Shown here piece after piece: positions 35,869 to 54,427 of a DNA stretch of 64,000 bases; the first letter of the stretch is position 1, and each line of letters opens with the position of its first letter. Under the pieces are notes generated by a model, which worked only from the letters and a program-made list of their open reading frames with translations, searched no databases and was not told where the DNA came from. Source of the stretch: Dentipellis sp. KUC8613 (taxonomy: Eukaryota; Basidiomycota; Agaricomycetes; Russulales; Hericiaceae); the NCBI GenBank assembly GCA_002286715.1, contig NSJX01000023.1:277152-341151 (forward strand), given 5' to 3'. A program made the translations under genes and the position numbers.

Positions 35869-35939
35869 GCATTAATGGGGTAGTGGTAACCTGGGTCGTT
35901 GCCATCGACCCGCCGGGGGTTCGATTCCCCCTTAATGCA
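35869..35939 (+). tRNA. tRNA-Gly (anticodon GCC)
   Basis: A 71-nt cloverleaf: acceptor stem GCATTAA pairs with TTAATGC, the D arm has TGGGGTAGTGG (A box), the anticodon stem GGTCG/CGACC encloses loop TTGCCAT, and the T arm has GGTTCGATTCC (B box). The anticodon GCC reads glycine GGC/GGT codons. There is no intron. It is flanked by AT-rich sequence, with no T-run right after the gene. Confidence 0.95.
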
Positions 35940-50045: not shown

Positions 50046-51274
50046 ATGGCACGTACCCTCCGAATCTTGGCCGCTGTAGCCCTCGCGATCATCGCGCCTG
50101 CCAACGCGCTCTGGCCACAGCCGCGCTCGCTGCAGACTGGGACAACCGCGCTCCGTCTAGCACCAGGCTTCGACATCAAGCTTTCCATCCAGCACGGGAG
50201 TGCGCCCGCAGACTTGCACGACGCCGTGTCGCGCGTGAAGCAGCAGCTGAGCGGTGACAAGCTCGAGCGGCTCGTCGTTGGGCGCGGCGCGGTCGATGCG
50301 GCCGCGGTGGGCAAGGCGAAACACGTGTCGTCGTTGACGCTGGAGCTGAGCGCGGCCAAGAGTGCCGGTGTGGGGACGCAGGTGAAGAGCATTGCGCAGG
50401 AGGCGATTGTGCCGCTGGAGGACAGGGATGAGGCGTATACGCTCCATGTGCCTGCGGACGGCTCGGGCGCGGTTATCACGGCGAACTCGACGCTTGGCTT
50501 GTACAGAGGCCTGACGACCTTCGGCCAGCTGTGGTACTACCACGATGGTGCTGTCTATACCATCGAGGCGCCCATTCAGATTGTGGACTCGCCTGCATAT
50601 GTACGTCCGACGCGCTATGTTCGTCTGCGACTGAGCTGATTCTGAAGGGAAGCCTTACCGCGGCTTCATGCTGGACACCGCCAGAAACTTGTGAGGCATC
50701 TCCAGATCCTTCTGCAGAGGCATCCTGACAGCCCGACAGCTTCCCCATTTCGGACATCAAACGGACATTGGACGCCATGAGCTGGGTGAAGGTCAGCTAG
50801 CCGCATCACATCTCTGACCCAGGATCTTTCCCTAATAATAGTGCAGATCAACACCTTCCACTGGCATATCGTGGATAGCCAGAGCTTCCCGCTCGAAGTC
50901 CCAGGCTACACCGACCTTGCTCAAAAAGGCGCCTACTCCGCGGATTCCGTGTACTCAGCGAGGGACGTCCAGGACATCGTCTCCTATGCTGGTGCGCGCG
51001 GGATTGACGTCCTTCTCGTGCGTATACGACGAGTTTCTAGAACACACTCCAACTGAACCACCGATAATTGCAGGAAATTGACACTCCTGGCCATACGTCC
51101 GTCATCTCTAAAGCGCACCCCGAGCACGTCGCATGCGCGGAAGCAACGCCTTGGGCTTCATACGCGAACGAACCGCCCGCGGGACAGCTGCGCTTCACGT
51201 CTCCCTCTACCACGAATTATACTGCCGGCCTGCTTGCCGCAGCCGCGAAGCTCTCTCCGTCGAAGCTGTTCAGC

Positions 51275-51278
51275 ACGG
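51275..51278. repeat. Target-site duplication, left copy (ACGG)
   Basis: ACGG lies immediately before the first LTR. The same ACGG follows the second LTR at 53317-53320, and removing the element plus one ACGG restores the GH20 exon sequence. Confidence 0.85.
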
Positions 51279-51539
51279 TGGAGTGGGGACTCTCCCCACT
51301 CCGAGGACTCAGCAGGGAGAGCAGGAGGGGTCCCAGGGGGCATGCAGGAGGGTTCGGGGGGCGCCGACGGAGAGTTCCGAGGCTTAGTCAGCCATTGCAG
51401 AGAGTTAGAGTCGTGTTCGTAGCTAGAGCATCGTTCGTGTCATCAGCATCATCCCAGCGCGCTGCTATAGCGTTGGGTCTCAGCTCATTGCGAGTGCGAG
51501 TCGTCTCTCGGGGTGTCTTAGGCAGATTCCCCCATCCCA
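51279..51539 (+). repeat. Left LTR (261 bp)
   Basis: Direct repeat of 53056-53316 with no difference seen. It begins TGGAGTGGGGACTCTCC and ends CCCCCATCCCA. Confidence 0.9.
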
Positions 51540-51752
51540 ACGTGGTGACGAGAGTGCGTTCGAACTCGTGCCAGGCGGGCGTCGTCGTGTCGTTCTCAGG
51601 CTCTTGCTGCTCGTGACAGCATCGTTCTCGCGTTCTCTTTCGGTCCAGCATCTCAGCGGCTGCGTTTCGTGTTTCGCACGATTGGCATTCTCTCCGTTTC
51701 TCTGCGTCATTCCCGCTTCGGTTTTCAGGTTGCCTCGTGTCGTATTCTCAAC

Positions 51753-52982
51753 ATGGGACGCCAGCGCACACGCGCCGCTACCAAAGCGGCAGCTTCTCAG
51801 CAGTCAGCAACTACAAAAACCGTAGTAGATGGCGCCCCATCCCATTCAGTAGCGTCATCCGCACACTCCACGTCACCGCCGTCTTCGACGCCAGCCCCAC
51901 ATTCAGGCGGAACAACACAAAGCAATATCGATTTTTCGGGACCGTACTCGAAATTCGCGGGGAAGGTCGATGGTGACACGCTTCAGGCGATTCGAAAGCT
52001 CGCAATGCTTGAAGGGCAGGCGCTTCTATTGCAGGAAGTCACAGATATGCAGAAACAGGCGAACACTGAGAACTATGAGGAAGGTTTCGGTGAAGGACAG
52101 CGGATAGGATTTGAAGACGGGCACAAGGCCGGCCGCAGGTCATTCCTCGAGGAGCTCCCAGAAAGGCTCGAAAAGGAACGAAAGGCAGGTTTCCAGGAAG
52201 GACACCAGGCTGCGCACGCAGAGAGGTCGCAGATTCTAGACGAACGGGCAGCCGCAGCCACGAAGGAAGCGCAACACAAAGCGGGCTATGACGAAGGCTG
52301 GGAAGCCGGGCGCGCAGCTCTCCTGAACCGCGTCGTGTCGACAAGACTTACGGAGGTCACGGAAAGTTTCGAAGCAGGGAGAGCAAGTGTGTTCAAAGAA
52401 GCAGCAGAGCACCGCTCGTCATTACAGGTGGATTCCAGCACGCAAACTGACATTCCGCTCTCGCTCTCGCGCGCCGTCGGGACTACCACCCAGATTTCCC
52501 CCGCTTCCACACAGACTGCACCCGAGCACCATTCGATTCTCAGCTCGGTCCTACAGTCTAAGTCTACACAAACGGACAACGGTCTCGCGCGTTCCGATTC
52601 AGCGACTGTGCGCACCCTTACTCCTGAGCCGGTGACTCAGCCATCCTTCAGTTGGGCCGACGAGGTCTGTGCCATTCCACTACCTGCACCACCATTGCCA
52701 ACTCTTCCGCGCGACATCTCGGTATTATCTTCGGGTTGCCTGCGACCATTCGGATCTCTGCAGCGTCGTGCTGGTCGGTCTCGGCGACAGCATCAGTGGC
52801 GGGCTCCTGTCTTCCCAAGACAACAGCCGTTCAAGTTTTGTGCTCATCACCCAGACTCGATGCATTCACGTTCTTCGTGGCGTTCTTCGCCATTGGACTG
52901 GGAGAGTGATCCACGTCTCTCGGAGTTGAGTCGTGTCCTGAGGGGTTTAGGTTGGGTCAGGTCAGGTCGTCGTTCGGCCTAG
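51753..52982 (+). CDS. Single ORF of the LTR element (gag-like or captured host-type protein)
   Basis: The frame opens MGRQRTRAATKAAASQQSAT; an in-frame Met upstream at 51669 is possible. A Ser/Pro/Thr-rich start is followed by a Glu/Lys/Ala helical region that repeats a Gly-x2-3-Glu-Gly pattern (YEEGFGEGQRIGFEDGHKAG, GFQEGHQAA, GYDEGWEAGRAAL). Next come three STQT(D) motifs (SSTQTD, ASTQT, KSTQTD). The end reads LPRDISVLSSG, PFGSLQRRAGRSRR and DWESDPRLSELSRVLRGLGW. From memory, this C-terminal pattern recurs in many hypothetical proteins of Agaricomycetes. No zinc knuckle, protease or polymerase motif is seen. It may be a capsid-like product or a captured host gene. Confidence 0.65.
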   Translation: MGRQRTRAATKAAASQQSATTKTVVDGAPSHSVASSAHSTSPPSSTPAPHSGGTTQSNIDFSGPYSKFAGKVDGDTLQAIRKLAMLEGQALLLQEVTDMQKQANTENYEEGFGEGQRIGFEDGHKAGRRSFLEELPERLEKERKAGFQEGHQAAHAERSQILDERAAAATKEAQHKAGYDEGWEAGRAALLNRVVSTRLTEVTESFEAGRASVFKEAAEHRSSLQVDSSTQTDIPLSLSRAVGTTTQISPASTQTAPEHHSILSSVLQSKSTQTDNGLARSDSATVRTLTPEPVTQPSFSWADEVCAIPLPAPPLPTLPRDISVLSSGCLRPFGSLQRRAGRSRRQHQWRAPVFPRQQPFKFCAHHPDSMHSRSSWRSSPLDWESDPRLSELSRVLRGLGWVRSGRRSA

Positions 52983-53055
52983 GGCGGCATGCTTTACGAC
53001 ATATCTCAGGCTTTTCAGTCGCGGCGCGGACGCCGCTTGGTTTTTTGGGGGCACA

Positions 53056-53316
53056 TGGAGTGGGGACTCTCCCCACTCCGAGGACTCAGCAGGGAGAGCA
53101 GGAGGGGTCCCAGGGGGCATGCAGGAGGGTTCGGGGGGCGCCGACGGAGAGTTCCGAGGCTTAGTCAGCCATTGCAGAGAGTTAGAGTCGTGTTCGTAGC
53201 TAGAGCATCGTTCGTGTCATCAGCATCATCCCAGCGCGCTGCTATAGCGTTGGGTCTCAGCTCATTGCGAGTGCGAGTCGTCTCTCGGGGTGTCTTAGGC
53301 AGATTCCCCCATCCCA
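53056..53316 (+). repeat. Right LTR (261 bp)
   Basis: Same sequence as the left LTR, followed by ACGG and then the GH20 catalytic exon. Confidence 0.9.
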
Positions 53317-54427
53317 ACGGGTGGCGACGAGCTCAATATCCCATGCTATGATGCGGATGAGGAGACGCAACAGACGCTGAACAGCACTGGGCAGACTCTT
53401 GAACAGGCTCTGGACAAGTTCACGCAGGCATCGCATGCGGCGCTGGAGAAGGAGGGTAAGACGCCGGTCGTTTGGGAAGGTATGTTTATTTGTTGGATGT
53501 CTTCAAGCCTGTTTGGTGAATTCGCGATCTGCAGAGATGGTCCTGAATTTCAACCTTACATTATCGAATGAAACTATCGTGCTGTATGTATACCTTCTGA
53601 TTATTGACGTGAGTAGCCATTGATGTAAGTATGTAGGGTCTGGATCTCCTCCCAGGATGCCGCATCCGTCGCGCAAAAGGGCTTCCGATTCATCCATTCT
53701 GCTTCTGACTACTTCTACCTCGTACGTCCACAGGTTCTCGCGCAGACAGCAATACTGAACCTTCAATAGGACTGCGGAGCTGGTGGATGGGTCGGGGCTA
53801 ACCCCGATGGGTAATTTACTCTACTTTCATACCCAGCTCCTTCTGACAATATCGCACACTTTGCAGCAACAGCTGGTGCGAGCCTTTCAAGACATGGCAA
53901 AAGGTATACAGTATCACAACGTCTCGCGCTATCACGCCCTGACCATCTCCGCAGTCATACTCCTTCGACCCGTCGGCCAACCTCACCGCCGAAGAAGCCA
54001 AGCTCGTCTTGGGCGGCCAGCACCTGCTGTGGACGGAGCAATCAGGTCCTTCGAACCTCGACTCCATCGTCTGGCCGCGCGCCGCGTCCTCCGCAGAGCT
54101 CTTCTGGTCCGGTCCTGGAGGCAACGTCAGCACCGCGCTGCCGCGTCTGCACGACCTCGCCTACCGCCTCAAACAGCGCGGCGTTGGCGCCATCGCGCTG
54201 CAGCCCGAATGGTGCGCACTGAGACCGGGAGTGTGCGACTTGACCGCGTAGGTAGGGCGTGCGGATTGATTGATCTAGGACGTTGGGTGGATATACCCTT
54301 GTCGTGACTTTTTTGTATACTCGATGCGCCGACACTAGTACCATGAATGACAATATTCACATTCGTGCATATGCTATATCGCAATACAGTAAGCTACAAG
54401 ATATCTCCGCGCCTAGACGTGCCCAAG

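What the first reader, a model, noticed from the sequence alone, without database searches (positions are those of the whole stretch)
51275..53320. Very young LTR insertion that splits the catalytic motif of a GH20 hexosaminidase
The element has 261-bp LTRs with no visible difference, a TG...CA border and an ACGG duplication on both sides. It sits between the codons for LFST and GGDE, just ahead of the catalytic Asp-Glu. Removing the element plus one ACGG leaves an uninterrupted exon, and the rest of the gene shows no decay. The insertion may be segregating or present on one nucleus of a dikaryon.
Basis: seen in the sequence. Interest (0 to 1): 0.75.

Follow-up and report, generated by a model that had tools for sequence, protein, structure and literature searches.

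The report
Small retroelement split a chitin-degrading enzyme gene
A 2-kb copy-and-paste DNA element landed inside a sugar-cutting enzyme gene of a wood-decay fungus; the insertion is ordinary in kind, but the element carries an undescribed protein that looks built to grip the cell's dynein light chain.

Summary
A 2,038-bp LTR element (51279-53316; identical 261-bp LTRs; ACGG on each side) interrupts a GH20 exon between LFST and GGDE. Joined flanks give an open exon, and two GH20 paralogues read STGGDE unbroken. The host is Dentipellis sp. KUC8613, whose deposited gene model fuses GH20 with the element's ORF. Zero differences in 261 bp only bound the age at about 0.6-5.7 Myr for assumed rates; segregation or a second nucleus could not be tested, and the assembly holds only the filled allele. 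The more interesting part was missed. The element is non-autonomous, its interior single copy, its primer site fits a tRNA (read as Leu), and its LTR is shared with a rearranged copy near Ty3/Gypsy frames, a candidate helper. Its 409-aa ORF is no recognised Gag: it belongs to an undescribed family (18 database relatives) with a long predicted helix, a disordered linker with dynein-light-chain (LC8) type motifs (36 TQT in 19 proteins against 3.2 expected) and, where complete, a conserved C-terminus. All three insertions seen of this LTR family duplicate ACGN, the bases that also separate LTR and primer site. Splicing could remove the element in frame, but none is shown.

The parts
50046..54251 (+). 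GH20 beta-N-acetylhexosaminidase gene, ten exons and nine introns of 48-56 nt once the insertion is ignored, interrupted by the element
   Evidence: PF14845 and PF00728 on deposited protein P0004
51275..51278 (.). left target-site duplication ACGG
51279..51539 (+). 5' LTR, 261 bp, TG...CA, opens with a hairpin
51540..51542 (+). ACG spacer between LTR and primer-binding site
51543..51556 (+). primer-binding site, 14 nt complementary to the 3' end (with CCA) of a tRNA gene family that I read as tRNA-Leu(AAG)
   Evidence: (13 exact genomic matches)
51753..52982 (+). 409-aa ORF of an undescribed protein family (stop codon included)
52086..52415 (+). codons for the long predicted helix, residues 112-221
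52431..52451 (+). LC8-type motif DSSTQTD
52500..52520 (+). LC8-type motif PASTQTA
52557..52577 (+). LC8-type motif SKSTQTD, full match to the published 7-position motif
52647..52961 (+). conserved C-terminal region (FxWADE, PRDxSxL, PFxSLQRR, DPRLxxLSxxLxxLGWxR)
53041..53051 (+). polypurine-tract-like T6G5 just ahead of the 3' LTR (by eye)
   Evidence: the last 35 bp of the interior recur at 94% beside the 3' LTR on C127
53056..53316 (+). 3' LTR, identical to the 5' LTR
53317..53320 (.). right target-site duplication ACGG
51278..53298 (+). possible single 2,021-nt intron: donor GTGGAG made by the last G of the left duplication plus the LTR's TG, acceptor TTAG in the 3' LTR; leaves LFST-ADSPIPT-GGDE in frame
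   Evidence: the same two outer sites are used by the deposited two-intron model (introns 51278-51764 and 52665-53298); not shown to be used

Best explanation
A low-copy, non-autonomous LTR retrotransposon inserted into the GH20 exon by ordinary LTR-element integration with a 4-bp target duplication. SHOWN: anatomy, one full copy in the assembly, and that its LTR, primer site and polypurine-side sequence are shared with a rearranged copy on contig C127. INFERRED: its RNA is primed by tRNA-Leu(AAG), and reverse transcription and integration are supplied by a Ty3/Gypsy element of the C127 type. It encodes one protein of its own, whose helical part shows purifying selection, made of a long predicted helix, a disordered linker with LC8-type motifs and a conserved C-terminus. 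Most likely (INFERRED) this is a Gag-like or RNA-accompanying adaptor that dimerises and is cross-linked by the host dynein light chain LC8, which would help assembly or transport towards the nucleus. Unspliced read-through stops within the element (51614), before the catalytic Asp-Glu, so unspliced messages should make no active enzyme.
For: Identical LTRs and ACGG on both sides; interior found once in 34.1 Mb; LTR elsewhere only as a solo LTR with ACGA on both sides (C101) and two near-identical LTRs on C127 with ACGT outside. Primer site fits 13 genomic tRNA ends exactly. C127: the primer site (1 mismatch) and an ORF in Gag position on the + strand, RNase H/integrase frames on the strand of its 3' LTR, and 97.9% inverted repeats (124759-125832 and 137404-138499, the latter reaching the end of the fetched stretch) that can explain an inversion between the halves. 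ORF: 18 relatives; pN/pS 0.34 (bootstrap 0.24-0.46) over 96 codons against the C99 relative. TQT 36 in 19 proteins, 3.2 expected, largest total 11 in 2,000 shuffles; 18 of 19 carry at least one. Model: helix 112-221, pLDDT block means 82-98 over residues 121-210, linker 221-290 at 42-52. The host has a dynein light chain gene. Stop at 51614.
Against: No transcript, binding or transposition data. The polymerase frames on C127 lie in a repeat-rich, rearranged region and are not proven to belong to that LTR; the ORF in Gag position there has no Pfam match above the family cut-offs and no relative but itself, and its model is poor (pLDDT 41). The ORF family is weakly like the glycine-repeat domain Yae1_N (0.43 for the window ORF; best 0.00038 in 2 of 19 members; 0.0035 for the C99 copy), so the helix may be a general repeat type. 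One of 19 (P0001) has no TQT; 18 of the 36 TQT are the first in their protein and may be one inherited site; only the window ORF meets the strict motif with Lys at -3, and four of 19 lack even a relaxed form. Whether the 18 relatives sit between LTRs could not be seen.
Confidence: 0.8

Rival explanations
1. Recent but fixed null allele: the element simply killed one of at least three GH20 genes, the others make the loss tolerable, and its ORF has no bearing on the host.
For: Two uninterrupted GH20 paralogues; read-through stops at 51614 before the catalytic residues.
Against: Gene otherwise undecayed; a frame-restoring splice route exists. These do not exclude it.
Confidence: 0.45
2. The element is tolerated because it is spliced out: either as one 2,021-nt intron leaving seven extra residues (ADSPIPT) ahead of GGDE, or, as in the deposited model, as two introns with most of its ORF kept as an exon in a GH20-ORF fusion protein.
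For: Both routes are in frame; the deposited protein DENSPDRAFT_882330 (P0004, 869 aa) is reproduced exactly by introns 51278-51764 and 52665-53298 plus the nine GH20 introns.
Against: The donor is GTGGAG with A at +5, while 7 of the gene's 9 own donors have G there (not a scored test). Host introns are 48-56 nt; these would be 487 and 634, or 2,021. The model may be pure prediction, and the added residues stand next to the active site.
Confidence: 0.2
3. The ORF is a captured host gene rather than an element protein family.
For: No retroelement domain; weak likeness to the cellular domain Yae1_N; one relative carries a 14-3-3 match, so capture may happen in this family.
Against: A second relative in the same genome (C99), itself broken, with selection on protein sequence; no host-gene counterpart found in this genome by two protein searches (the only other hit was E 0.26 on C119); relatives of very variable linker length.
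Confidence: 0.15
4. ACGN in all target duplications is chance or an ordinary integrase preference, not pairing of the ACG cDNA overhang with the target.
For: Only three insertions; similarity beyond ACG is not consistent (fractions of 1,277 background ACG sites at least as similar: 0.011, 0.71, 0.087).
Against: The frequency of ACG in the sampled DNA gives 6e-6 for three of three in the same orientation (noticed before it was tested), and a symmetric integrase should not prefer one orientation (inference).
Confidence: 0.5

Closest known systems
Non-autonomous LTR retrotransposons TRIM / LARD / TR-GAG
   Same: Two LTRs, primer site, polypurine tract, no polymerase, presumed helper (TRIM: passages of PMC10886601; LARD in Laccaria: passages of PMC3411680; TR-GAG: search listing only)
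   Different: Longer than a TRIM and shorter than a typical LARD (sizes recalled), and carries one conserved ORF that is not a recognised Gag
Helenus (fungal TRIM with tRNA-like LTR, also in some Agaricomycetes)
   Same: Fungal non-autonomous LTR element (passages)
   Different: No RNA family matched in this element (one hit at E 2.3, far below its threshold); fungal Helenus makes 5-bp duplications, here 4 bp
Sirevirus and foamy-virus Gag that bind dynein light chain 8
   Same: A retroelement protein with a link to dynein light chain (titles of Havecker 2005 and Petit 2003 seen in reference lists; one foamy-virus passage; the Havecker paper is not held)
   Different: Plant Ty1/copia and animal retrovirus Gag; no sequence relation tested; binding here is predicted from motifs only
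ASCIZ and other multivalent LC8 clients
   Same: Several TQT-type motifs in a disordered stretch, here next to a long helix (abstracts in listing; passages of PMC3078936)
   Different: Those are host proteins
Ty3/Gypsy LTR retrotransposons
   Same: RNase H and integrase frames of this type lie near the C127 copy with the same LTR
   Different: The window element has none of these domains

Membership tests
LTR retrotransposon | direct terminal repeats with TG...CA ends | tested here: met
LTR retrotransposon | target-site duplication | tested here: met
   ACGG both sides; ACGA around the C101 solo LTR and ACGT outside the C127 pair
LTR retrotransposon | primer site complementary to a tRNA | tested here: met
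   14 nt; identity Leu(AAG) is my reading of six printed genes, while ARAGORN with introns called 9 of 12 loci Arg(CCT), 1 Leu(AAG), 1 Thr, 1 none
LTR retrotransposon | polypurine tract before 3' LTR | tested here: met
   T6G5 by eye, conserved on C127
Autonomous Ty3/Gypsy element | gag and pol with RT, RNase H, integrase | tested here: not met
   the longest ORF is 409 aa without such domains
TRIM | very short, no coding capacity (definition recalled) | tested here: not met
   2,038 bp with a 409-aa ORF that has relatives
LARD | long non-coding interior (definition recalled) | tested here: not met
   1,516-bp interior with a conserved ORF
TR-GAG | single ORF that is a recognisable Gag (definition recalled) | tested here: inconclusive
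   no Gag match in Pfam; no solved sequence relative below E 0.19; remote homology not excluded
Helenus | tRNA-like sequence in LTR | tested here: not met
   the only tRNA called in the window is at 35869
GH20 hexosaminidase (host gene) | GH20 sequence with catalytic Asp-Glu in GGDE | tested here: met
   the catalytic role of Asp-Glu is recalled
LC8 client | TQT-type motif in disordered sequence | tested here: met
LC8 client | physical binding to LC8 | not testable with these tools
   none

The most novel reading that the evidence does not exclude
A fungal class of polymerase-less LTR elements carries its own conserved LC8-recruiting coiled-coil protein instead of a classical Gag, a fungal counterpart of the Sirevirus and foamy-virus Gag-LC8 link; and its cDNA chooses targets by pairing the three-base overhang between LTR and primer site (ACG) with the duplicated target bases.
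Probability: 0.25. Interest if true: 0.7.

Novelty: new variant of a known kind. Interest (0 to 1): 0.45.

Why it matters
The insertion itself is a standard gene disruption. If the protein family binds LC8, retroelements of plants, animals and fungi would share one host transport hub, and non-autonomous elements would be shown to supply a trafficking part while borrowing polymerase. The ACG pattern makes a simple, testable prediction about how an LTR element's cDNA end may steer integration. The deposited fused gene model is also a practical warning for GH20 counts in this genome.

Tried and rejected
Self-priming (Tf1 type): only 6-nt complementarities between the 40 nt behind the LTR and the LTR. 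Other elements with this primer site: 7 matches at up to 3 mismatches, two being this LTR family; the other five were first tested on one side only, and for three of them on the wrong side, with C103 left out; on repeating, 450 bp on both sides of all five showed no LTR-like repeat within the DNA fetched (only a 183-bp internal repeat at 74% on C6 and short matches of up to 34 nt on C76). Small RNA in the LTR: none. Relatives in viral and prokaryotic contig collections: none confirmed among 167 and 81 pattern matches. Solved relatives of the ORF family: none below E 0.19. Relation of the ORF family to the C127 ORF in Gag position: none (probability 0.1%). Structure of that ORF: too poor to use; no fold search was run for either model. 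Wider similarity of target sites to the primer region: not consistent. None of the titles and abstracts listed in ten paper searches describes this element or its ORF family; of the listed papers only passages of six were seen. The host's own genome paper did not turn up.

Full report
What is there. The finding is real. The element runs from 51279 to 53316 (2,038 bp) with LTRs that are identical over all 261 positions and begin TG and end CA; ACGG lies directly outside on both sides. Joining the flanks with one ACGG gives an open exon reading LFSTGGDEL. GGDE aligns with the same residues of solved GH20 enzymes, and two other GH20 genes of this genome read straight through the same position. 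The GH20 domain search over the genome gave matches on three contigs only, C4, C45 and C88.

Whose genome. A protein search returned P0004, hypothetical protein DENSPDRAFT_882330 of Dentipellis sp. KUC8613, on a contig of 416,383 bp, the length of the contig that holds the window; a second protein of that species lies on a contig with the length of C127. The species is a Russulales basidiomycete. P0004 is a fusion: GH20 up to LFST, then the element's ORF without its first four residues up to FSWADE, then ADSPIP from the 3' LTR, then TGGDE and the rest of GH20. Splicing nine GH20 introns of 48-56 nt and two introns inside the element (51278-51764 and 52665-53298) reproduces P0004 letter for letter.

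Age and allele state. Zero differences in 261 bp allow up to 5.7 Myr at 1e-9 or 0.57 Myr at 1e-8 per site per year (assumed rates), so 'very young' is not proved by the LTRs alone. The open reading of the split gene points the same way but is no clock. The assembly has one copy of the locus (3 candidates, 3 scored, the other two partial at 66%). No read data, other strain or second haplotype was available.

The family in this genome. The interior occurs once (2 candidates scored; the second is 35 bp beside an LTR). The LTR occurs at six scored places: the two here; one solo LTR on C101 with ACGA on both sides; and on C127 one LTR on each strand, one of them interrupted by 889 bp and so counted as two places. 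The two C127 LTRs are near identical (0 substitutions over 142 columns, 3 substitutions and 3 gap columns over 117) while both differ from the window LTR, and their outer flanks both carry ACGT. They are best read as the ends of one element split by an inversion, and a 97.9% inverted repeat at 124759-125832 and 137404-138499 could have caused it. Next to the 5' end lie the same primer site (1 mismatch) and an ORF in the position of Gag (241 residues from its Met), whose own part matches nothing else in the genome; its 318-aa stop-to-stop frame begins with a repeat found on other contigs. On the strand of the 3' end lie RNase H and integrase frames with the end of a reverse transcriptase. This is a candidate helper of Ty3/Gypsy type, not a proven one: the region is full of repeats and the ORF in Gag position has no relative in the databases but itself.

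Primer. The 14 nt starting three bases after the 5' LTR match the 3' end, with CCA, of a tRNA family with 13 exact genomic matches; 9 more places matched with one mismatch, and the reversed-pattern control gave 8 at up to one mismatch. Twelve of the 13 exact matches had loci. ARAGORN in its bacterial mode did not call them; with introns it called 9 of 12 loci Arg(CCT), 1 Leu(AAG), 1 Thr and 1 none. The six genes printed there have a long variable arm and a CTAAG anticodon arm with an intron behind it, so I read them as tRNA-Leu(AAG).

The protein. The ORF of 409 residues has no Pfam match at E 0.1 and only Yae1_N at 0.43 at a looser limit. Two of the 19 family members match Yae1_N (best 0.00038), as does the C99 copy (0.0035, below the curated cut-off); the likeness lies in a glycine-spaced helix. 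Searches found 3 relatives among 7,995 scored and 18 proteins among 7,989 scored. Leaving out P0004, which is this locus, 18 distinct relatives remain over both searches. Of these 19 proteins with the window ORF, 11 reach the conserved C-terminus ending in LGW; the other eight stop earlier. Against the C99 relative in the same genome, 96 aligned codons of the helical part give pS 0.76 (saturated) and pN 0.26, pN/pS 0.34 with bootstrap 0.24-0.46, so protein sequence there has been selected while elements diverged. A search with P0006 found only the window element. The AlphaFold2 model has one long helix, residues 112-221, then a low-confidence linker and short C-terminal helices (mean pLDDT 62.3, pTM 0.31).

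The LC8 idea. The linker holds DSSTQTD, PASTQTA and SKSTQTD. The last fits all seven positions of the motif [D/S]-K-X-[T/V/I]-Q-[T/V]-[D/E], and the peptide DKSTQTD was measured at 5.6 uM (passages of PMC3078936). Across 19 proteins TQT occurs 36 times against 3.2 in shuffles (largest total of 2,000 shuffles 11), and no other xQx triplet exceeds 12. Eighteen of the 36 are beyond the first in each protein, so the excess does not rest on one inherited site alone, though these proteins are related and two pairs are close. P0001 has none; only the window ORF meets the strict motif, and four proteins (P0001, P0002, P0010, P0014) lack even the relaxed form. The host has one dynein light chain match above the family cut-off. 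Binding of retroelement proteins to dynein light chain is on record for Sireviruses and foamy virus by titles seen in reference lists, so the principle would not be new; the protein family and the fungal setting would be. One search for LC8, TQT and retrotransposon together gave one unrelated paper, and one for dynein light chain, LTR retrotransposon and Gag gave nine, none on fungi by title.

Target sites. The three insertions seen duplicate ACGG, ACGA and ACGT. ACG is also the spacer between LTR and primer site, which would be left as a 5' overhang of the cDNA after end processing (inference from known retroviral chemistry). ACG makes up 1.8% of triplets in the sampled DNA, giving 6e-6 for three of three; I noticed the pattern before testing it and three cases are few. 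Similarity further out is not consistent: 0.011, 0.71 and 0.087 of 1,277 background ACG sites do as well.

Effect on the gene. Reading on from LFST into the LTR stays open to a stop at 51614, before the catalytic pair. But the last G of the left ACGG and the LTR's TG make a GT donor, and the 3' LTR offers a TTAG acceptor; using both would remove 2,021 nt and leave LFST-ADSPIPT-GGDE in frame. The deposited model uses the same outer sites. The donor lacks the G at +5 that 7 of the 9 GH20 donors have. Nothing here shows that either splice happens.

Verdict. An ordinary kind of event, correctly seen, with an overstated age and an untestable allele claim; inside it sits an unusual single-protein non-autonomous LTR element with a new protein family.

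Noticed in passing
P0003 (relative of the ORF): This relative carries a match to 14-3-3 (Pfam E 1.3e-8, one of 19 members), which looks like capture of a host gene piece by the family.
   Followed up: no
L018:2746-4435 (G000 C127:112745-114434): A 1.7-kb palindrome: the stretch matches its own reverse complement at 92.7%.
   Followed up: no
G000 C127:119716-120248 and 134975-135485: A repeat of about 530 bp (94.9%) lies both within the integrase-side frames and just ahead of the ORF in Gag position; protein hits suggest more copies on C112, C100, C67, C29, C45 and C170.
   Followed up: partly
window 51279-51302: The LTR opens with a hairpin, predicted as 11 pairs around a 3-nt loop.
   Followed up: no
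L021:5672-6400 (G000 C99): A second, broken member of the ORF family, with no LTR pair found by self-comparison of the fetched 10-kb stretch.
   Followed up: partly
NCBI model DENSPDRAFT_882330: The public gene model fuses GH20 with the retroelement ORF and may distort GH20 and orphan-gene counts.
   Followed up: yes
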